Part shown: positions 22,021-33,639 of the stretch, in pieces
Layout: each line of letters opens with the position of its first letter
Numbering within the stretch: position 1 is the first letter of the stretch
Source: Lactobacillaceae bacterium L1_55_11
Lineage (GTDB): Bacteria; Bacillota; Bacilli; Lactobacillales; Lactobacillaceae
Reading direction: 5' to 3'
DNA length: 64,000 nt
Assembly (NCBI GenBank): GCA_029433155.1
Contig: JAQYTT010000001.1
Span: 310,001 to 374,000 of the forward strand
The notes under the pieces: model-generated
The model's database searches: none
What the model saw: the letters and a program-made list of their open reading frames with translations, nothing else
What the model was told of the DNA's origin: nothing
Program-made: the position numbers and the translations under genes

Positions 22021-22075
22021 TATTTTAAATTACAGTATAATGACCTTGTTTTAGGTGTTGAAAGGAAAGACAGGA

Positions 22076-23767
22076 ATGGTTGAAAATCCAGCAGTTGTTG
22101 CAGCCTTGGCTGCCGTTATCCCGGACTTGAGCCCGGCTGAAATCCAAGATAAGTTAGAAGAGCCCAAGAGCAGTAACCTGGGGGATGTTGCCTTTCCAGC
22201 CTTTAGCCTGGCTAAGATTATGCACCAATCACCGGTCCAAATTGCCGCTAAATTAGCTGATGACATTGATCAGACTGGTTTTGAAAAGGTGGTTGCGACT
22301 GGCCCTTACCTGAATTTCTTTTTGGATAAGGTGGCTACTTCGGCCTCAGTGTTGACCACCATCTTAGGTCAACAGGAACACTATGGTGACCAAACTGGCC
22401 CCAAGCGGGGCAATGTCACCATCGACATGTCCTCACCTAACATTGCTAAGCCAATGTCCATGGGCCACCTGCGCTCAACCGTGATTGGTAATTCGTTGGC
22501 TAATATTGCCGCTAAAAATGACTACCAGCCTATTAAAATCAACCACCTTGGTGACTGGGGAACCCAGTTTGGTAAGTTGATTTATGCCTACAAGACCTGG
22601 GGTAGTGAGGACGAAGTCAAGGCTAATCCAATTGACACCCTGCTGAAGTACTACGTCGAGTTCCACGAACGGGCCGAAAAGGACGATAGCCTCAATGATG
22701 AGGGTCGGAAGTGGTTCAAGAAGCTTGAAGACGGTGATGAAGAGGCCCTGCGGCTGTGGCGCTGGTTCCGTGAAGCTTCTCTGCAGGAGTTTACCGAAAT
22801 TTATGACCGCCTGGGCATTACCTTTGATTCATATAATGGTGAGGCCTTCTATAATGACAAGATGGATGGCGTGGTTGACCAGCTGGCTGATAAGGGCCTG
22901 CTCGTTAAGTCCCAGGGGGCCGAGATTGTTGACCTGTCATCGGTTAACGAAAACCTGACCCCAGCCATGATTAAGCGTTCTGACGGGGCGACCCTATACA
23001 TGACTCGGGACTTGGCCGCTGCCATTTACCGTAAGGAAACTTACAACTTTGTGAAGTCCTTGTACGTCGTTGGTGGCGAACAGCGGGAGCACTTTGTCCA
23101 GCTCAAGGCAGTTTTGTCCCTGATGGGTTATGACTGGGCCGATGATATTGAACACATCGCCTTTGGTCTGATTACCTTCAACGGCAAGAAGATGTCAACC
23201 CGTAAGGGGGATGTGGTCCTCCTAAAAGACGTCTTAGACGACGCCCACCAATTGGCCCTGGCTCAGATTCAAGAAAAGAATCCAACCCTGACCAACCAGG
23301 ACTTGGTCGCCGAACAGGTTGGGGCGGGCGCGGTTGTCTTCCATGATTTGATGAACGACCGGACTAACAACTTCGACTTTAACTTGGAAGAAGTGGTCCG
23401 TTTTGAAGGGGACACCGGCCCTTACGTGCAATACACTAACGCCCGGGCCCAGTCAATCCTGCGCAAGGCCGAACGAGCCGTTCAGCCTGATGACACCCAG
23501 CTCGATGATCCGGCTACCTGGGAAATTGTTAGTGCCTTAAGCCAGTTCCCAGCCACGGTTAGCCGGGCTTGGGAACGGCGGGAACCCAGTGTGATTGCTA
23601 AGTATGCCCTATCCCTGGCGCGGTCCTTTAACAAGTACTATGCTAATTCCAAGATTTTAGTTGACGATGACCAGTTAAACGCGCGCTTGGCACTTGTGGC
23701 GGCCGTTTCCCAGGTTTTGACCGAAGCCCTACGTTTGCTTGGCGTGGAAGCACCGAAGGAAATGTAA
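22076..23767 (+). CDS. argS: Arginyl-tRNA synthetase
   Basis: 563 residues from ATG 22076 (AAAGGAAAG upstream). Class I synthetase: N-terminal Add-1 domain, the HIGH-like SMGHLRSTVIGNSLA near residue 130, KINHLGDWGTQFG, YMTRDLAAAIYR, and the KMSKS equivalent GKKMSTRKGD; C-terminal anticodon-binding DALR domain. Charges tRNA-Arg. Controlled by the T-box; a TATAAT at 22036-22041 after the terminator could give weak T-box-independent expression, but lacks a -35. Confidence 0.97.
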   Translation: MVENPAVVAALAAVIPDLSPAEIQDKLEEPKSSNLGDVAFPAFSLAKIMHQSPVQIAAKLADDIDQTGFEKVVATGPYLNFFLDKVATSASVLTTILGQQEHYGDQTGPKRGNVTIDMSSPNIAKPMSMGHLRSTVIGNSLANIAAKNDYQPIKINHLGDWGTQFGKLIYAYKTWGSEDEVKANPIDTLLKYYVEFHERAEKDDSLNDEGRKWFKKLEDGDEEALRLWRWFREASLQEFTEIYDRLGITFDSYNGEAFYNDKMDGVVDQLADKGLLVKSQGAEIVDLSSVNENLTPAMIKRSDGATLYMTRDLAAAIYRKETYNFVKSLYVVGGEQREHFVQLKAVLSLMGYDWADDIEHIAFGLITFNGKKMSTRKGDVVLLKDVLDDAHQLALAQIQEKNPTLTNQDLVAEQVGAGAVVFHDLMNDRTNNFDFNLEEVVRFEGDTGPYVQYTNARAQSILRKAERAVQPDDTQLDDPATWEIVSALSQFPATVSRAWERREPSVIAKYALSLARSFNKYYANSKILVDDDQLNARLALVAAVSQVLTEALRLLGVEAPKEM

Positions 23768-23800
23768 GTACTAATGGGCAGTTAATTGTAGGGAGACCCT

Positions 23801-25882
23801 ATGAATTTTTTTAAGCAAGTAAGGGCGTCTAAGACCTGGCAGTCGATGGCTGCCGTCTGGAATCGCTGGCAGCTTGGCCGCCTGTTAATTGTTAGTTTTT
23901 TGGCCCTCTTTTTCTTAAGTAGTGCCTATCTGGTCGGGGTGGCGAAGACCGCCCACGTCCGCAATTTACAGGCCTCCTTATCCCAAACGACTAACATCTA
24001 CGATAACAATAACCAACAGGCTGGTCAGCTCTACTCTCAAAAGGGGACTTACGTTAAGTACGACCAGATTTCACCCAACATGCGCGACGCCGTCCTATCG
24101 ATTGAGGACCGTAATTTCTACCACGAACATGGTTTCTCAGTGAAAGGGCTGGCCCGTGCGGCCTATCTTTTGGTTAAAAACCGCCTGACTGGGTCCAAGG
24201 TGATTTCTGGGGGTGGCTCGACCATTACCCAGCAGCTGGTTAAAAATGCCTACCTCAACCAGGAACAAACCTTTAGCCGAAAAGCCAAGGAAATCTTTTT
24301 GGCCATGCAGGTTGAGCAGGTTTACAGCAAAAATCAGATTCTAACCATGTACCTAAACAATGCCTGGTTTGGTAACGGGGTCTGGGGGGTTGAAGATGCT
24401 TCCCAAAAGTACTTTGGTGTCCATGCCAGTGACCTGACTACGGCCCAGGCAGCGACCTTGGCTGGGATGTTGACCAACCCGAGTGGCTTTAACCCGATTG
24501 ATCATCCCGACCGGTCGAAATTACGGCGCGACTTGGTCTTGCAGACCATGGTTGCTAATAAGAAATTGAGTCAGTCGGATGCCCAAGCGGCCATTAACAG
24601 TCCGATTGTTCTCAACGATACCTATTCCGGTAGCGAGGGTTACCGCTACCCTTGGTTCTTTGATGCGGTGATTAACGAAGCTGTCAATAAGTATGGCCTG
24701 GATGAAAAGGCCATCATGAACGGTGGTTACAAGATTTACACCACCCTGAATCAAAAGGATCAGGATAACCTGCAAAAGGACTATCTCAATAACAGCCTCT
24801 TTGGTAATCAAAATAGCGCCCAGGCGGCCACGGTCGTCTTGAATGCCCAAGATGGTGGCGTCCGCGCCGTGATTGGTGGCCGGGAAACCCAGCACACCTT
24901 CCGAGGCTTTAACCGGGCGACTCAGGCCAGTTTGCAGCCCGGATCGATTATCAAACCAATCGTGGTTTATGCGCCGGCCTTATCCAGTGGTTACACGATT
25001 AATTCCAAGTTGCCTAACCACCGCCTGACCTTTGGGACGAATGGCTATTCCCCAAGCAATGCCTTAAACATTGAAACTGGGGATGTGACCATGTACCAGG
25101 CCCTGGAGCACTCCTATAATATTCCGGCCGTTTACCTGCTAAATAAGATGGGCATTAACACCGGTTACCAGAGTGCTTTGAAGTTCGGCCTGCCCGTTAC
25201 TGACCAGGATAAGACCTTATCCTTGGCCCTGGGTGGTTTGACCAAGGGCGTTTCGCCCCAGCAAATGGCCCAGGCCTACACGGCCTTTGCCAACAACGGG
25301 ACGATGAGTCAGGCCCACTATATCAATAAGATTGTTGATGCCAGCGGGAACGTGGTCGTTAGCAAGCCGGATTACCAGCAAAAGCAGGTGATTTCTAGCA
25401 AGGTGGCCGATAATATGACCCGGATGATGCTGGGTACTTATACGAACGGTACCGGTGCCGGGGCAGCGCCGTCTGGCTTTACCATTGCTGGTAAGACCGG
25501 AACCACTGAAAACCCTAATGATCCCAATAACGCCAACTCGTCCAAGGATTCCTGGGCAGTTGCTTATACCAAGGATGTGGTCCAGGTTTCCTGGATGGGT
25601 CTGGAAGGTAACGATACCGGTTCCTTGCCACTGGGCTTGATGGGTACCATTGGACCGCTGGTGAAGACCTCAATGGGTCAGATTTTACCTAACACTAGTG
25701 AGCAGAACTTCACCGTTACCAATCCCAACCAGCCGACCGATAACCAGACGACTGGCAATGGTAACAACAATGGCTCTAACTGGTTAGATAATGCTGGTAA
25801 AACCATTAACGACGGGATTGATAAAACGGTTGATGGGGCTGGTAAAGTATGGGATACTATCAGGAGTTGGTTCAATAATTAG
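23801..25882 (+). CDS. pbp1A: Penicillin-binding protein 1A (bifunctional transglycosylase/transpeptidase)
   Basis: 693 residues; AGGGAG before the ATG. One membrane helix (about residues 29-47), GT51 domain with SIEDRNFYHEHGFS (catalytic Glu), GGSTITQQLVKNAYL and YLNNAWFGNGVWGVEDASQ; transpeptidase with SxxK in LQPGSIIKPIV, SxN in EHSYNIPAV and KTGTTE. The C-terminal ~60 residues are rich in Asn, Thr and Gly (GNGNNNGSNWLDN...), a common PBP1A linker-tail. Polymerises and cross-links peptidoglycan outside the membrane. Downstream of argS by 33 bases. Confidence 0.95.
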   Translation: MNFFKQVRASKTWQSMAAVWNRWQLGRLLIVSFLALFFLSSAYLVGVAKTAHVRNLQASLSQTTNIYDNNNQQAGQLYSQKGTYVKYDQISPNMRDAVLSIEDRNFYHEHGFSVKGLARAAYLLVKNRLTGSKVISGGGSTITQQLVKNAYLNQEQTFSRKAKEIFLAMQVEQVYSKNQILTMYLNNAWFGNGVWGVEDASQKYFGVHASDLTTAQAATLAGMLTNPSGFNPIDHPDRSKLRRDLVLQTMVANKKLSQSDAQAAINSPIVLNDTYSGSEGYRYPWFFDAVINEAVNKYGLDEKAIMNGGYKIYTTLNQKDQDNLQKDYLNNSLFGNQNSAQAATVVLNAQDGGVRAVIGGRETQHTFRGFNRATQASLQPGSIIKPIVVYAPALSSGYTINSKLPNHRLTFGTNGYSPSNALNIETGDVTMYQALEHSYNIPAVYLLNKMGINTGYQSALKFGLPVTDQDKTLSLALGGLTKGVSPQQMAQAYTAFANNGTMSQAHYINKIVDASGNVVVSKPDYQQKQVISSKVADNMTRMMLGTYTNGTGAGAAPSGFTIAGKTGTTENPNDPNNANSSKDSWAVAYTKDVVQVSWMGLEGNDTGSLPLGLMGTIGPLVKTSMGQILPNTSEQNFTVTNPNQPTDNQTTGNGNNNGSNWLDNAGKTINDGIDKTVDGAGKVWDTIRSWFNN

Positions 25883-25933
25883 AACCTGATTAGTAACCGT
25901 GTAACCCTAGAATGAATGCAAAAAGGAAGTACC

Positions 25934-26284
25934 ATGACCGTTAATATTTACGATAATGCTAATGAAATGGCTAACGTTTTGACTGAAACTGACCAGTATA
26001 TTGCCTGGCAGAATGCCTTTGGTGCCGTCCAAGACGACCAGGAAGCCAAGGACCTCTTTGCCCAGTTTCAAAAGATTCAGGCCACGGTTCAGCAGTTGAT
26101 GCAGGCCCAGCAAACTCCTAAGCCTGAACAGGAAAAGGAGTGGGATGCTGTCGCTAAGGACGTGCAGTCTAACGAATTAATTAAGAACCTAATGACGGCT
26201 GAGCAGAACTTAAACGGTCTCTTGGGTGAACTCAATGAAATCGTAACTAAGCCTATTTCTCAGGCTTACGCTGACGCTCAGTAA
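25934..26284 (+). CDS. yheA: YlbF/YmcA/YheA family protein (DUF964)
   Basis: 116 residues from ATG 25934 (AAAAGGAAG). All-helical: NIYDNANEMANVLTETDQY, AVQDDQEAKDLFAQFQKIQ, then KPEQEKEWDAVAKDVQSNELIKNLMTAEQNLN, the family signature region. B. subtilis relatives YlbF/YmcA act with RNase Y; YheA itself has no settled role. Followed by its own terminator. Confidence 0.87.
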   Translation: MTVNIYDNANEMANVLTETDQYIAWQNAFGAVQDDQEAKDLFAQFQKIQATVQQLMQAQQTPKPEQEKEWDAVAKDVQSNELIKNLMTAEQNLNGLLGELNEIVTKPISQAYADAQ

Positions 26285-26294
26285 GGTTAGTGAT

Positions 26295-26324
26295 AAAAAG
26301 CAATTCTTTGGAATTGCTTTTTTG
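26295..26324 (+). terminator. Terminator after the YheA-like gene
   Basis: Stem AAGCAATTC/GAATTGCTT, loop TTTG, T6. Confidence 0.9.
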
Positions 26325-26341
26325 CTTTGTAGGAGGCCCTG

Positions 26342-26986
26342 GTGTCACGATTCAGTGAGCTAAAAATCAAAGATTCTTTTTGGCTGGGACGGGTGTTGCC
26401 CACTGTTTTGGTGGCCCTGATTTTGGGTCTTTTAGTGCACTTTTTCTTGTTTAGTGGCGGCGTTGTAAAAGGTTCGGCTATGCAGCCGAATTTAAAAGCT
26501 GGTCAGTACGTCTGGATTAACCGGGTCAGTAAGGTGGAGCGGGGTGACGTGATTGCCTTTAAGGGCTCAGTCGCCGACCCCCGGCATGCCCACGCCGGTC
26601 AGTATGTCCAGCGGGTAATTGCAGTTGGTGGTGATACGGTTAGGTTCCAGGATGGCCAACTTTACGTTAATGGCCGTCGGGTTAAACAGGGGGCAATTGC
26701 TACCGACCAAAAGGGGCCTGGTACGGCTCTAAGCTTTGGTGACAGCTGGGATTTGCAGTCCTTATCGGCTAGCAAGCTCTGGAAAAAAGGAGACCGCAGC
26801 CAAAAACGGGTTCCCAAGGGTGCCTACTTTGTCCTTGGGGATGACCGCAGCCAGGCCAATGACAGCCGCTACTTTGGCTTTGTCAGTCAAAAAGCGGTCT
26901 TAGGTCGGGTGACGCTGCCTGCCTGGGCTGGTACCGGTCAACAGCGGCAGGCCGTTAATGACGGCCGTCAGCAGTATTGGGCTTAA
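26342..26986 (+). CDS. Signal peptidase I homologue lacking the catalytic Ser/Lys dyad
   Basis: 214 residues from GTG 26342 (TAGGAGG 7 bases before). One N-terminal membrane helix (residues 18-37), then an S26 domain in the usual order: box B VVKGSAMQPNLKAGQYV, VERGDVIAFKG, box C QYVQRVIAVGGDTVRF, GQLYVNGRRV and box E VLGDDRSQANDSRYFGF. In active enzymes box B is GxSMxP and box C YxKR; here the serine position is Ala46 (GCT, 26477-26479) and the lysine position is Gln90 (CAG, 26609-26611). The frame is intact. So it is probably a non-catalytic member, comparable in kind to SpsA of S. aureus. It may bind preproteins or be a regulator; an active enzyme must be encoded elsewhere. Confidence 0.88.
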   Translation: MSRFSELKIKDSFWLGRVLPTVLVALILGLLVHFFLFSGGVVKGSAMQPNLKAGQYVWINRVSKVERGDVIAFKGSVADPRHAHAGQYVQRVIAVGGDTVRFQDGQLYVNGRRVKQGAIATDQKGPGTALSFGDSWDLQSLSASKLWKKGDRSQKRVPKGAYFVLGDDRSQANDSRYFGFVSQKAVLGRVTLPAWAGTGQQRQAVNDGRQQYWA

Positions 26987-26989
26987 CGG

Positions 26990-27018
26990 TTGTGCAAAGG
27001 GACCTTTAATGATATATT
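26990..27018 (+). promoter_or_regulatory. pyr operon promoter
   Basis: TTGTGC (26990-26995), 17-base spacer, TATATT (27013-27018). Confidence 0.7.
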
Positions 27019-27024
27019 GTAAGC

Positions 27025-27168
27025 AATCAATTGAACACCTTTAATCAGGTCCTGTGAGGCCTGCAAGGTTTCATAAACTTTTTCCAAGTAGGGGTGGGGA
27101 CTACCCACTTTCTCGGGCTAATTTTTTATGAAAGCCAGGCAGGTCGGTCGTGATTTGCCTGGCTTTTT
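27025..27168 (+). promoter_or_regulatory. PyrR-responsive attenuator leader of the pyr operon
   Basis: A PyrR binding-loop match CAGGTCCTGTGAGGCCTGCA lies at 27046-27065, followed by AAGG; the consensus is AGUCCAGAGAGGCU. The terminator is AGCCAGGCA (27133-27141) with TGCCTGGCT (27156-27164) and T5. Known mechanism: PyrR with UMP binds the leader and favours termination. No pyrR is encoded here. Confidence 0.82.
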
Positions 27169-27182
27169 GTTTGGAGAAGATG

Positions 27183-28085
27183 ATGCCCGATTTTCTAAAT
27201 ATCAATGAATTGGACCTCCCACTAATTGAGCGCTTGATTAACCGCAGTCTCGCGCTAAAACAGGGGGCTAAATCAAATAGTCGCCATCTGGCTGCCGCTA
27301 ATCTGTTCTTTGAAAATTCAACCCGGACCCACTCTAGCTTCCAAATGGCAGAGAACAAGTTAGGCTGGTCCCAAATTTTAATCGACCCCCAGGCCAGTTC
27401 GATGGCCAAGGGTGAGAGCCTACTGGATACCTTAAAGACCTTAAAAGCCATTGGCGTGGACGTCGCGGTGGTTCGCCACCAGCAAGCCGACTGGTACCAG
27501 GACATGGTTCAAAATAAGGGCTACCCAGTGCCCCACCTGGTCAATGCCGGCGATGGCAACGGTCAGCATCCTTCCCAAAGTCTCTTAGACCTGGTCACGA
27601 TTTACCAGGAATTTGGGCACTTTGCCGGATTAAACATTCGCATTACTGGTGATCTCAGACATTCGCGGGTAGCCCGTTCCAATGCTGAAATTCTAAACCG
27701 CTTAGGCGCCCGCCTAACCTTTGTGGCACCGCCACAGTGGCGGGCACCTTGGTTTGACCAGTACGGCCACTATGCTGAATTAGATGATGATTTGGATCAG
27801 CAGGACGTAGTTATGTTTTTGCGGGTCCAGCATGAGCGCATTACCCAGCGGGAAAATCAGAATTTTTCAGTCCTGGACTATCACCAACATTATGGGCTGA
27901 CGCCCGCACGCTACCAGCAACTTAAACCCAGTGCGATTATCATGCATCCAGCGCCGGTTAACCGGGATGTTGAAATTGCTAGCGACTTGGTGGAAGCACC
28001 TAAGTCCCGGATTTTTCGACAGATGGAAAACGGGGTTTATGCCCGGATGGCAATCTTAGAATATGTGACGGCCGAGAGCCGGTAA
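27183..28085 (+). CDS. pyrB: Aspartate carbamoyltransferase catalytic subunit
   Basis: 300 residues from ATG 27183; the preceding ATG at 27180 abuts the GGAGAAG site. Motifs: FENSTRTHSSFQMAENKLGW (carbamoyl-phosphate loop), GDLRHSRVARSN, MHPAPVNRDVEI. Condenses carbamoyl phosphate with aspartate, the first committed pyrimidine step. First gene of pyrB-pyrC-carA-carB-pyrF-pyrE, behind the PyrR attenuator. Confidence 0.97.
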   Translation: MPDFLNINELDLPLIERLINRSLALKQGAKSNSRHLAAANLFFENSTRTHSSFQMAENKLGWSQILIDPQASSMAKGESLLDTLKTLKAIGVDVAVVRHQQADWYQDMVQNKGYPVPHLVNAGDGNGQHPSQSLLDLVTIYQEFGHFAGLNIRITGDLRHSRVARSNAEILNRLGARLTFVAPPQWRAPWFDQYGHYAELDDDLDQQDVVMFLRVQHERITQRENQNFSVLDYHQHYGLTPARYQQLKPSAIIMHPAPVNRDVEIASDLVEAPKSRIFRQMENGVYARMAILEYVTAESR

Positions 28086-28095
28086 GGAGATGATG

Positions 28096-29382
28096 ATGGC
28101 GGAGTTGATTCAAAATGCTCAGATTTTAGACACGGCCGGCCAACTGGTCGACAGTGATGTCTTAATCGAAGACGGTCACATCCAAGCAGTGGGGCCCCAT
28201 CTTCAACCAGTCGAAGGGGTATCGGTCACTGACGCCCATGGGGCCTTTTTAACCCCGGGCTTAGTCGATGTCCATGTTCACTTCCGTGATCCTGGCTTTA
28301 CTGACAAGGAAACGATTCGAACTGGTTCCCAGGCGGCTGCCCATGGCGGCTTTACGACCGTTTTGGCCATGCCCAACTTAAACCCAGTGCCAGATACACC
28401 TGAGAAATTAGCCGCTCAAATCCGCTTAAACCAGACCGAAGGTGTGGTCAACGTGCTTCAGTACGGTGCGATTTCTGCTAACCTAATCGATAAAAACGTC
28501 AGTGATCTTGCAGCCATGAGTGCTGAAGGGGCGGTTGCCTTTAGTAATGATGGCAAGGGGGTCCAGGATGCGGGGACCATGTACCAGGCCATGCTGGGTG
28601 CTGCGGCCGTTGATAAGCCCCTGGCTGCCCATTTGGAAGATAACTCCCTGATTAACCACGGTGTCATTAATGAGGGCGTAGCTTCAAAGCGCCTGGGCTT
28701 GGCTGGCATTACCGGTCTAGCCGAAAGTTCCCAACTGGCCCGTGACCTGGTCTTGGCTCAGGCTACCGGGGTCCACTACCACGTGGCTCATATTTCGACA
28801 AAGGAGTCGGTTACCCTGGTCCGTCTAGCTAAAGAGCAGGGGATTAAGGTGACGGCTGAAGTTTCGCCCCATCACTTACTTTTATCAGATGAGGACATTG
28901 TGGGGGATAACGCGCTCTTTAAGATGAACCCACCCCTGCGGTCGGAGGCTGACCGGGAGGCCCTGGTCGCTGGCTTGCTGGATGGCACCATTGACATGGT
29001 GGCAACTGACCATGCCCCCCATACCGCCAGTGAAAAGGCCCAGAGCATGCAAACTGCACCCTTTGGCATTACTGGCATTGAAACCAGTTTCCAGCTCCTT
29101 TATACCCACCTCGTTAAAAGCGGGGTGATGACCTTGGCAACCTTAATTGATCGGATGTTAGTCCGACCTATCCAGGCCTTTGGCCTGGCAGCCCCTAAAC
29201 AGATTCAGGTTGGGCAAGTGGCTGATTTAGCCCTCTTTGACCTAACCGATACCACCACCATTAACTTTGATGACTTCGCCTCTAAGGGCAAGAATTCTCC
29301 CTTTGTTGGCTGGCAGGTTAATGGCAGCACCCTGGCTACCTGGGTGGCTGGCAAGCGTGTCTATGAAAGGACGGCAAAATGA
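28096..29382 (+). CDS. pyrC: Dihydroorotase
   Basis: 428 residues. Three tandem ATG codons (28090, 28093, 28096) follow AAGGAG; the third has the best 6-base spacing. Amidohydrolase motifs: DVHVHFRDPGFTDKETIRTG (metal HxH), HLEDNSLINHG, YHVAHIST, EVSPHHLLL, DMVATDHAPH. Closes carbamoyl-aspartate to dihydroorotate. Overlaps carA by 4 bases. Confidence 0.97.
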   Translation: MAELIQNAQILDTAGQLVDSDVLIEDGHIQAVGPHLQPVEGVSVTDAHGAFLTPGLVDVHVHFRDPGFTDKETIRTGSQAAAHGGFTTVLAMPNLNPVPDTPEKLAAQIRLNQTEGVVNVLQYGAISANLIDKNVSDLAAMSAEGAVAFSNDGKGVQDAGTMYQAMLGAAAVDKPLAAHLEDNSLINHGVINEGVASKRLGLAGITGLAESSQLARDLVLAQATGVHYHVAHISTKESVTLVRLAKEQGIKVTAEVSPHHLLLSDEDIVGDNALFKMNPPLRSEADREALVAGLLDGTIDMVATDHAPHTASEKAQSMQTAPFGITGIETSFQLLYTHLVKSGVMTLATLIDRMLVRPIQAFGLAAPKQIQVGQVADLALFDLTDTTTINFDDFASKGKNSPFVGWQVNGSTLATWVAGKRVYERTAK

Positions 29383-30467
29383 AAACCAAGTATTTAATGT
29401 TAGCAAACGGTTCAGTCTACAAGGGTCAGGGCTTTGGTGCTGACCACGACGTGATGGCCGAACTGGTTTTTAATACGGGTATGTCTGGTTACCAAGAATC
29501 AATTACTGACCTCTCATACCGAGGTGAAATGATTGTTTTCACCTACCCCTTGATTGGTAACTACGGTATTAACCGAGATGATTTTGAAAGTTTACACCCA
29601 GCCGCAGCTGCCATTGTGGTCCATGAGATTGCCCGCCGTCCTAGTAACTGGCGTAAGATGATGAGCCTGCCCGAGTGGGCCGAGAAAAATGACCTGCCAG
29701 GTATTAGCGGGGTTGATACCCGGGCTTTGACCAAGGAACTGCGGGAAGAGGGTGCCATGAAGGCCGCCCTGGTTGACGAAGTAACTGATGAGGCCTGGGA
29801 ACGTTTGGCGGCCTTTAACAAGGACACCAACATGGTGGCGGATGCGACCACCAAGACCCAGTACCAAAGTCCTAACGACGGTCCTTCGGTGGCCCTGATT
29901 GACTTTGGCTTAAAAAATTCGATTCTGCGTTCTTTAGCTAAGCGGGGCGTGAACGTGATGGTTTTCCCATCCACGGTGGATGCTAAGACGGTCGTGGCCG
30001 CTAATCCCGATGGGGTTCTGCTTTCTAATGGACCTGGTGACCCGGCTGACGTGGATTACGCCATTCCCATGATTCAAGAACTCCAGGAAGCCGTACCCTT
30101 GATGGCAATCTGCATGGGCCACCAGCTCTTTGCCATTGCAAACGGGGCTACGACTTACAAGATGAAGTATGGGCACCGTGGCTTTAACCACGCCATTCGG
30201 CGTGAAGGGCAGGATCGCCTAGATTTTACCTCCCAAAACCACGGTTACGCCGTGGACCGGGATAGCCTGGCCGGCACTAACTTAGAAATTACCCACGAAG
30301 AAATTAATGATGGTACAGTCGAGGGATTGCACTTGAAGGATCACGATGCCTTCTCCGTTCAATTCCATCCCGATGCCGCACCTGGTCCTCACGATGCTGA
30401 GTACCTGTTTGATGAGTTTTTGAAGTCGATTGAGGAAAACCAGAAAAAAGGGGTGACCCATGCCTAA
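29379..30467 (+). CDS. carA: Carbamoyl-phosphate synthase small (glutaminase) subunit
   Basis: 362 residues. N-terminal CPSase domain ([23 protein letters not shown]) and class I glutamine amidotransferase domain with [12 protein letters not shown], nucleophile Cys245 in MAICMGHQL and His330 in [13 protein letters not shown]. The third triad residue, normally Glu in HPE, is Asp332 (GAT). Supplies ammonia to CarB. Because it lies in the pyr operon it is the pyrimidine-specific pair (pyrAA). Confidence 0.95.
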
Positions 30468-33400
30468 ACGCCAAGATATCCACAAAATTTTAGTGATTGG
30501 TTCTGGTCCAATTGTGATTGGGCAGGCTGCTGAGTTTGATTATTCGGGTACCCAGGCGGCTCTGTCTTTGAAGGAAGAAGGCTATTCGGTGGTGCTGGTT
30601 AACTCCAACCCCGCTACCATCATGACTGATTCAGAAATTGCCGATAAGGTTTACATTGAGCCCTTGTCATTAGATTTCTTAGAGCAGATTTTACGTAAGG
30701 AACGGCCTGATGCCATCTTGCCAACGCTGGGTGGTCAAACGGGTTTGAACCTGGCTAAGGACTTGTCTGAAGCCGGGATTCTGGACGAACTCCACATTGA
30801 ACTGCTGGGCACCAAGTTATCAGCCATTGAAGAGGCCGAAGACCGCGAAGAGTTCAAGGAGCTGATGGAACGTCTCCACGAACCCATCCCTGAGTCGGTG
30901 ATTGCTACTCATTTGGACGAGGCCTTGGAATTCGCTGACCAGTACGGTTACCCCGTGATTGTTCGGCCCGCCTATACCCTCGGTGGTACTGGTGGTGGGA
31001 TTGCCCACAATCACCAGGAATTGGCTGAAATTGCCAGCAATGGGCTGGAGTTATCACCAGTTACCCAGGTTTTGATTGAGCGTTCGATTGCCGGCTTCAA
31101 AGAGATTGAGTTTGAAGTTATGCGCGACGCCCACGATAATGCCCTGGTCGTGGCCTCGATGGAAAACTTTGATCCGGTTGGGATTCACACCGGTGATTCA
31201 ATCGTAACCGCCCCGGTCCAGACCCTGTCAGACCGGGAAGTTCAGATGATGCGGGATGCCGCCTTAAAGATTATCCGCGCCCTTAAAATTGAGGGTGGGG
31301 TTAACATTCAGATGGCCCTCGATCCCAAGTCTTATAACTACTACATCATTGAAGTGAACCCCCGGGTTTCCCGGTCTTCAGCCCTGGCTTCCAAGGCCAC
31401 AGGTTACCCAATTGCTAAGGTTTCGGCCAAAATTGCCGTTGGCCTGACTTTAGATGAAATTATTAACCCCGTGACGGGAACAACAAAGGCTGAGTTTGAG
31501 CCGGCCCTGGACTACGTTGTGGTTAAGATTCCACGTTGGCCCTTTGATAAGTTTGTCACCGCTGACCGACATCTGGGTACTCAGATGAAGGCCACCGGTG
31601 AAGTCATGGCCATTGGTCGCAACTTCGAAGAAGGTTTGTTAAAGGCGGTCCGCTCCCTGGAAATTGGGGTGATTGGCTTAGATGACATGACCTTCCCAGA
31701 CTGGTCAACCGAGGACCTGCTGGATAGTTTGATGCCAGCCCGGGATGACCGGCTCTTCATGCTGGCCGAACTCTTGCGGCGGGGTGAAAGCATTGAGACC
31801 CTGCATAAAATTACCAAGATTGACGAGTTCTTCTTGGACAAGGTGGCCCACCTGGTTGAAATCGAGCAGGACTTAAAGGACCACGTTGGTGACGCGGACT
31901 ATCTAGACTATGCTAAGAAAAACGGCTTTGCGGACCAGACCATTGCTAAGCTTTGGGGTTGGCAGAGTGCCCAGGATGTCCGTGAATTCCGTAAGGGGCA
32001 GGGGATTACGCCCGTTTATAAGATGGTGGATACGGTGGCGGCCGAATTTGAGTCGCAGACCCCTTATTATTACAGTACCTATGAGCAGGAGAATGAATCG
32101 ATTGTTTCTGACCGCCCTAGCGTCTTAGTTCTGGGTTCTGGTCCAATCCGGATTGGGCAGGGGGTCGAGTTTGACTACGCCACTGTCCATGCCGTGGAAG
32201 CCATTCAAGCGGCGGGCTATGAAGCCATTATCATGAACTCGAATCCAGAAACGGTTTCCACTGACTTTTCGATTTCAGACAAGCTCTACTTTGAGCCACT
32301 GACCTTAGAAGATGTTTTAAACGTGACTGACCTAGAAAAACCAATGGGTGTCGTGGTTCAATTTGGCGGTCAAACGGCGATTAACTTGGCAGAGCCTTTG
32401 GCTGAAAACGGGATTAAGATTCTCGGTACCTCAGTTGAGAATCTCAACCGGGCTGAAGACCGTGAGGCCTTTGACCAGGTAATTAAGGAATTGAACCTAC
32501 CCCAGCCAAAGGGCATGACCGCCACGACCGTTGACGGTGCCCTGGAGGCTGCTCAAAAGATTGGTTATCCGGTCCTGATTCGCCCTTCCTATGTTTTGGG
32601 CGGTCGGGCCATGGAAATCGTGGTCGATGACCATGAGTTGAAGGATTACATGCAGCGGGCCGTCAAAGTTTCCCATGATCACCCAGTTTTGATTGACTCC
32701 TACCTGATTGGTCAAGAAGCCGAAGTCGATGTTTTGTCAGACGGTCAAACGGCGGTTATTCCAGGTATCATGGAACATATCGAACGGGCCGGGATTCACT
32801 CCGGTGATTCAATGTCAGTTTATCCACCCCAGTACCTGTCTGAAAAGGTGCGCAAGGAAATCGTGGATGCCTCCATCAACCTGGCTAAGGCCTTGGGTAC
32901 GGTGGGGTTGATGAACGTCCAGTTTGTTATTCATGAAGACAAAGCCTACGTGATTGAAGTTAATCCCCGGGCTTCCCGGACGGTACCCTTTATTTCCAAG
33001 GTGACCCACATTCCTTTGGCCCAGCTGGCAACCCGGGTAATGCTGGGTGAAAAGTTGGCCGATCTAGGTTACAAGACCGGTCTGGCACCCGAAGATGACA
33101 AGGTCCACGTTAAGGCCCCAATCTTCTCCTTCACTAAGTTGCCAGCTGTCGATTCCCTCTTAGGACCAGAAATGAAGTCCACCGGGGAAGTCATGGGCTC
33201 CGATACCACTCTGCCTAAGGCGCTTTATAAGGCCTTTATCGCTTCCAATATCCAGGTGCCACAGTATGGTAACGTGCTCTTTACGGTGGCTGATGGTGAC
33301 AAGGAAGAGGCCCTACAGCTAGCCCAACGCTTCAACGATCTTGGCTTTTCACTCTATGCTACCGCTGGCACTGGTCAGTATTTGATTGACCACGGTCTGC

Positions 33401-33639
33401 CAGTCGAAATCTTAGACAAGATTGATGAGTCGGATAATAATCCACTCCAGGCCCTCCGTGATCAGAAGCTGCAAGTAGTCGTTAATACTACCCAGGTTGA
33501 TGACCGGGCCGAAGAGGATGGTCAGCGGATTCGTGCTGCGGCCATCGAAAATGGTGTGCCACTCTTTACCGCCTTGGATACGGTCAAGGCCTTCTTAGAT
33601 GTCTTAGAGAGTCGCAGTTTTACGGTTAACGAACTTTAA
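30460..33639 (+). CDS. carB: Carbamoyl-phosphate synthase large subunit
   Basis: 1059 residues, full length. Two homologous synthetase halves: [30 protein letters not shown] and [16 protein letters not shown] in the first; [19 protein letters not shown] and [17 protein letters not shown] in the second; ATP-grasp ends [19 protein letters not shown]-like and [15 protein letters not shown]. The C-terminal ~150 residues are the MGS-like regulatory domain ([11 protein letters not shown]). Makes carbamoyl phosphate from bicarbonate, ammonia and 2 ATP. Overlaps carA by 8 bases. Confidence 0.98.

What the first reader, a model, noticed from the sequence alone, without database searches (positions are those of the whole stretch)
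26342..26986. Signal peptidase I homologue with both catalytic residues replaced
All S26 boxes are recognisable but the nucleophile serine is Ala46 and the general-base lysine is Gln90; the frame and box E are intact. Loss of both members with the rest kept points to a conserved pseudoenzyme rather than decay. S. aureus SpsA is a known case of an inactive SPase I.
Basis: partly seen in the sequence, partly recalled or inferred. Interest (0 to 1): 0.62.

Follow-up and report, generated by a model that had tools for sequence, protein, structure and literature searches.

The report
Retained, catalytically dead signal peptidase I
A small lactic acid bacterium keeps, alongside two intact signal peptidases, a third copy whose two catalytic amino acids are replaced; four genomes in two genera carry the same replacements and selection preserves the protein, so it very probably has a non-enzymatic job in protein export.

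Summary
Window 26342-26986 (+) encodes a 214-aa type I signal peptidase (PF10502 E 2.5e-39) with Ala46 for the nucleophile Ser and Gln90 for the base Lys. It is not strain-specific or a sequencing error. All four genomes held of two genera (the window's genus; Convivina) have Ala and Gln in the syntenic gene argS-pbp1A-ylbF-SIP-pyrB-pyrC, with three different Ala codons and both Gln codons. dN/dS is 0.12 and 0.09 in two separate species pairs (neutrality rejected, P 8e-9 and 2e-16), so the gene is kept, not decaying. Two other genes in the genome encode SPases with intact Ser/Lys. A related genus (g17) holds a Ser/Lys SPase in the same slot, so the slot probably lost catalysis once while duplicates elsewhere took over cleavage; the tree does not prove this. 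Fold, membrane anchor and the S1 half of the peptide cleft are kept; the S3 half and a box-E serine are changed. The most likely role is a non-catalytic preprotein-binding accessory of secretion (inferred). Each of the four genomes has one sortase only, which argues against the pilus role of S. pyogenes SipA, the best-studied dead SPase. New member of a known kind.

The parts
26342..26986 (+). Catalytically dead type I signal peptidase homologue (psSip), 214 aa
   Evidence: PF10502 E 2.5e-39, TIGR02227 E 9.6e-38; AlphaFold model (pLDDT 65, pTM 0.62) matches SPase I structures, VIA Z 13.5 to SipA and 11.7 to SpsB
26363..26449 (+). N-terminal membrane anchor (residues 8-36, one helix)
   Evidence: helix in model; same place as in the active paralogues
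26477..26479 (+). Ala46 codon GCT at the position of the nucleophile Ser (box B)
   Evidence: Ser in 46 of 46 active relatives
26609..26611 (+). Gln90 codon CAG at the position of the general-base Lys (box D)
   Evidence: Lys in 46 of 46 active relatives
26855..26857 (+). Ala172 codon GCC at the box E serine (LepB Ser278); Ser in Convivina
26331..26336 (+). Shine-Dalgarno AGGAGG before the GTG start
   Evidence: sequence itself
26295..26322 (+). Terminator-like hairpin between ylbF and psSip, also present in Convivina
25916..26284 (+). ylbF/ymcA-family gene, upstream neighbour (synteny marker)
   Evidence: PF06133 E 9e-24; order kept in Convivina and g17
27150..28085 (+). pyrB, downstream neighbour (synteny marker), behind a PyrR-type leader; longest ORF from a GTG, the true start may lie downstream
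   Evidence: order kept in Convivina and g17; leader RF00515 at 27034-27172

Best explanation
psSip is a membrane-anchored type I signal peptidase that has lost catalysis and is kept for a non-catalytic function. Shown: Ser->Ala and Lys->Gln in all four orthologues of two genera, strong purifying selection, conserved fold and S1 peptide pocket, and two Ser/Lys paralogues in the same genome. Likely, not proved: the SPase gene of the ylbF-pyrB slot was inactivated once in the common ancestor of Convivina and the window's genus, after duplicates at other loci could carry cleavage. Inferred: psSip sits in the membrane near the translocon and binds signal-peptide C-regions or other extracellular peptides in its cleft without cutting them, as a holdase, accessory subunit or competitive regulator for the active SPases or a subset of secreted proteins. 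The remodelled S3 side would change which peptides it prefers.
For: Same Ala/Gln in four assemblies; codons GCT/GCC/GCG and CAG/CAA differ, so the residues are held at protein level. dN/dS 0.123 and 0.094, P(neutral) 8e-9 and 2e-16; active paralogues 0.00-0.055. The four form one clade, 100/99. 38 of the 50 positions invariant in 46 active enzymes are unchanged in all four; the only ones substituted in all four are S46, K90, H168 and V171. S1 residues kept (V42, M47, V89 = SpsB Ile32, Met37, Val76), S3 side changed (40 V/A->G/S, 72 V/I->A/N, 87 D->Q/N) (pocket definition PMC4704075). An SpsB Ser->Ala mutant still folds (PDB 4wvg, PMC4704075). SPase I fold: Foldseek E 1.6e-9, VIA Z 11-13. Active paralogues sipB and sipC.
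Against: No direct evidence of peptide binding, expression or interaction. psSip changes faster than its neighbours (dN/dS 0.12 against 0.00-0.05) and the branches to the clade are long, so constraint is weaker than on active SPases. Convivina copies lack the last 20 residues. The S3 pocket change could mean that the old peptide site is no longer used. A terminator-like hairpin precedes the gene and no sigma-70-like promoter was found, so expression may be low.
Confidence: 0.6

Rival explanations
1. A scaffold or partner whose function does not use the old peptide cleft: psSip pairs with an active SPase, the translocon or another envelope protein and regulates or localises it.
For: The cleft is only half conserved: S3-side residues 40, 72 and 87 are changed in all four, while fold and membrane anchor are kept. 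Genomes with psSip carry three SPase genes.
Against: S1 residues and the YVxRVI strand that pairs with substrate are invariant, more than a pure scaffold needs. No interaction data.
Confidence: 0.25
2. A slowly decaying relic of the old SPase gene with no function.
For: Faster evolution than neighbours; C-terminal truncation in Convivina; the whole slot, with the pyr genes, is gone in g2 genomes.
Against: dN/dS far below 1 in two separate pairs; intact frame in four genomes; Ala/Gln fixed with synonymous codon change; 38 of 50 family-invariant positions kept.
Confidence: 0.07
3. A SipA-type factor for assembling sortase-linked pili.
For: Same kind of double loss with a conserved fold; best structural match is SipA, VIA Z 13.5, 2.6 A over 129 residues.
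Against: Exactly one sortase in each of the four genomes; the window genome's matches no pilus-class model above cut-off; SipA pili need their own class B sortase (PMC4049620). psSip is not in a pilus operon. By sequence it is far closer to ordinary Gram-positive SPases (E 7.5e-22 against 2.2e-5 for SipA).
Confidence: 0.04
4. An active protease with an unusual catalytic group.
For: The fold and much of the cleft are kept.
Against: No conserved alternative: Ser45 is Asn in Convivina, the box E serine is Ala in the window's genus, no new Lys near position 90.
Confidence: 0.04

Closest known systems
Streptococcus pyogenes SipA/LepA (PDB 4n31, 4k8w; PMC4049620)
   Same: SPase I fold and cleft, both catalytic residues replaced (Asp48, Gly85), no peptidase activity detected, retained and functional.
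   Different: Encoded in a pilus operon with a class B sortase and essential for pilus polymerisation; psSip lies in a housekeeping slot, its genomes have one sortase, the replacements are Ala and Gln, and its sequence is closer to ordinary SPases.
Staphylococcus aureus SpsA (PMC12445088)
   Same: Chromosomal SPase I homologue lacking two conserved catalytic residues, dispensable, in a cell with an active enzyme (SpsB).
   Different: SpsA sequence not compared here; psSip is not next to its active paralogues, which lie on other contigs.
Active Gram-positive SPase I: S. aureus SpsB (4wvg-4wvj), B. anthracis (4nv4), E. faecalis (4me8)
   Same: Fold, single N-terminal anchor, boxes B-E recognisable, S1 pocket.
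   Different: Ser/Lys dyad present; psSip has Ala/Gln and changed S3-side residues.

Membership tests
Type I signal peptidase (S26A, PF10502/TIGR02227), by descent | Match above curated cut-offs over the domain | tested here: met
   135.4 bits (cut-off 22.9) and 129.6 bits (cut-off 47)
Type I signal peptidase (S26A, PF10502/TIGR02227), by descent | SPase I fold | tested here: met
   Medium-confidence model (pLDDT 65, pTM 0.62); Foldseek E 1.6e-9 to SpsB, VIA Z 11-13
Active signal peptidase I (enzyme) | Ser nucleophile in box B | tested here: not met
   Ala46 in all four orthologues
Active signal peptidase I (enzyme) | Lys general base in box D | tested here: not met
   Gln90 in all four orthologues
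Active signal peptidase I (enzyme) | Cleavage of preproteins | not testable with these tools
   Needs an assay
SipA pilus-assembly factor | SPase I fold without the Ser/Lys dyad | tested here: met
SipA pilus-assembly factor | Pilus operon with a dedicated sortase | tested here: not met
   Neighbours are pbp1A, ylbF and pyr genes; one sortase per genome, no pilus-class model above cut-off for the window genome's
SpsA-type dead SPase in a cell with an active enzyme | Dyad lost while another gene in the genome encodes an intact SPase | tested here: met
   sipB and sipC have Ser/Lys; Convivina has two intact copies
SpsA-type dead SPase in a cell with an active enzyme | Homology to SpsA closer than to other SPases | not tested
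   No SpsA sequence was compared

The most novel reading that the evidence does not exclude
In the ancestor of Convivina and the window's genus the housekeeping signal peptidase gene was turned in place into a dedicated non-catalytic preprotein-binding factor with altered peptide preference, while duplicates took over cleavage: a two-component division between binding and cutting that I know of for no bacterial SPase I.
Probability: 0.25. Interest if true: 0.65.

Novelty: new member of a known kind. Interest (0 to 1): 0.45.

Why it matters
The dead SPase I homologues I could find in the literature come from two pathogens: SpsA (function unknown) and SipA (pili). This one has a traceable origin, lies in what looks like the ancestral housekeeping slot, is under measured selection and occurs where no pilus can explain it. 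It suggests a more general non-catalytic use of the SPase fold, testable in harmless lactic acid bacteria.

Tried and rejected
Strain-specific inactivation or sequencing error: rejected by four assemblies. Decay: rejected by dN/dS. SipA pilus role: made unlikely by sortase counts. Alternative nucleophile: none conserved. Whether psSip descends from the g17 slot gene by tree: unresolved. Grouping psSip with the g17 slot genes costs 0.93 lnL, p-AU 0.449; grouping it with the active copies of its own genomes costs 3.8, p-AU 0.305; long branches and odd composition limit this. First AlphaFold model from three sequences was useless (pLDDT 38); the second, with five viral-contig SPases added, is usable for fold only. 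The genome-contig scan returned only the two Convivina loci. No paper on dead SPases in this clade was found. One script stopped before comparing the second Convivina active pair.

Full report
What is there. The ORF at 26342-26986 (+) starts with GTG behind a good Shine-Dalgarno sequence and encodes 214 aa. It is a type I signal peptidase by Pfam and NCBIfam, well above curated cut-offs. The nearest solved relatives are Gram-positive SPase I enzymes (E. faecalis 4me8 E 7.5e-22; B. anthracis 4nv4; S. aureus SpsB). Box E is recognisable but altered: His168 is Asp and the box E serine is Ala172.

The genome. The window lies in a 1.39 Mb genome (G000) with two further SPase I genes on other contigs, sipB and sipC, both with Ser and Lys. 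The genus nearest to it by this gene is g7, which contig lengths identify as Convivina (C. praedatoris, C. intestini).

Orthologues. The other held species of the genus (96% identical) and both Convivina species (53-54% over the aligned part) have the same gene in the same order, argS-pbp1A-ylbF-SIP-pyrB-pyrC-carA-carB. All four have Ala46 and Gln90. The Ala codon is GCT, GCC or GCG and the Gln codon CAG or CAA, so the residues are fixed while the DNA under them changed. In a sample of 397 genomes of the family, only these four stood out with the psSip profile (372-386 bits; next best 215 bits), and every further top hit that could be read had Ser and Lys. Lower-ranking SPases of other genera were not read, so independent losses elsewhere are not excluded.

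Selection. Nei-Gojobori dN/dS for psSip is 0.123 between the two species of the window's genus (25 synonymous, 11 non-synonymous changes) and 0.094 between the two Convivina species (46 and 20). Neutrality is rejected with P 8e-9 and 2e-16. Active SPases gave 0.052 (sipB), 0.00 (sipC) and 0.055 (one Convivina pair); neighbours gave 0.00-0.05. The gene is kept, under somewhat weaker constraint than its active relatives.

Origin. In g17 genomes the same slot, pbp1A-ylbF-SIP-pyrB-pyrC, holds a Ser/Lys SPase. It is often the only one; some g17 genomes have a second, also Ser/Lys. In g2 genomes the slot gene is gone together with the adjacent pyr genes and the only SPase found lies beside rbsK, in the neighbourhood of the window genome's sipB. 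The four psSip form one clade (100/99), and the active copies of Convivina and the window's genus group, with moderate support, with those of g2. The simplest history is one inactivation in the slot in the ancestor of the two genera, with duplicates doing the cutting. The tree neither proves nor rejects that psSip descends from the g17-type slot gene (p-AU 0.449).

What was kept and lost. Of 50 positions invariant in 46 active enzymes, 38 are unchanged in all four psSip. Using the pocket residues published for SpsB (PMC4704075), the S1 side is kept (V42, M47, V89) and the S3 side is changed (40, 72, 87). The AlphaFold model (pLDDT 65, pTM 0.62) has one N-terminal helix and the SPase core; it matches SipA (VIA Z 13.5) and SpsB (Z 11.7), with E. 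coli SPase at Z 10-11. Model confidence is too low to read side chains.

Mechanism. Cleavage by the known mechanism is excluded by the missing nucleophile and base, and no conserved substitute is visible. The best-supported reading is a membrane-anchored protein that still binds peptides near the exit of the translocon and acts as an accessory or regulator of secretion; that step is inferred. S. pyogenes SipA shows that a dead SPase can be essential for an envelope process with its cleft conserved (PMC4049620), but its pilus role needs a dedicated sortase, and the four genomes have one sortase each.

Verdict. It is a new member of a known kind, dead SPase I pseudoenzymes, with an unusually clear evolutionary setting and an unknown target.

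Noticed in passing
window 27034-27172 (+): PyrR binding-site leader (RF00515, 51.8 bits, just under the gathering score of 54) between psSip and pyrB.
   Followed up: no
window 22055-33639 against L043: dS between the two species of the genus tends to rise along the locus, from argS 0.056 through psSip 0.185 to carB 0.451, which looks like a recombination mosaic.
   Followed up: no
window 26295-26322; same place in L044 and L045: Terminator-like hairpin directly before the psSip ribosome site, conserved in Convivina; several g17 slot genes also show a hairpin-like repeat there.
   Followed up: partly
L091, L093 (g2 genomes): ylbF is followed directly by a lexA-like gene in the opposite direction, the gene order expected if SIP and the whole pyr block were deleted; other g2 genomes have an aspartokinase-like gene there.
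   Followed up: partly
L048:661-14001: Active sipC sits in a region with hsdM, a KAP-family NTPase (PF07693), a PsiE-family protein and the start of a very large surface-like protein.
   Followed up: partly
L046:7611-8945 (Convivina praedatoris): The two active SPase genes of Convivina are a tandem pair; in the window's genus their relatives are on separate contigs.
   Followed up: partly
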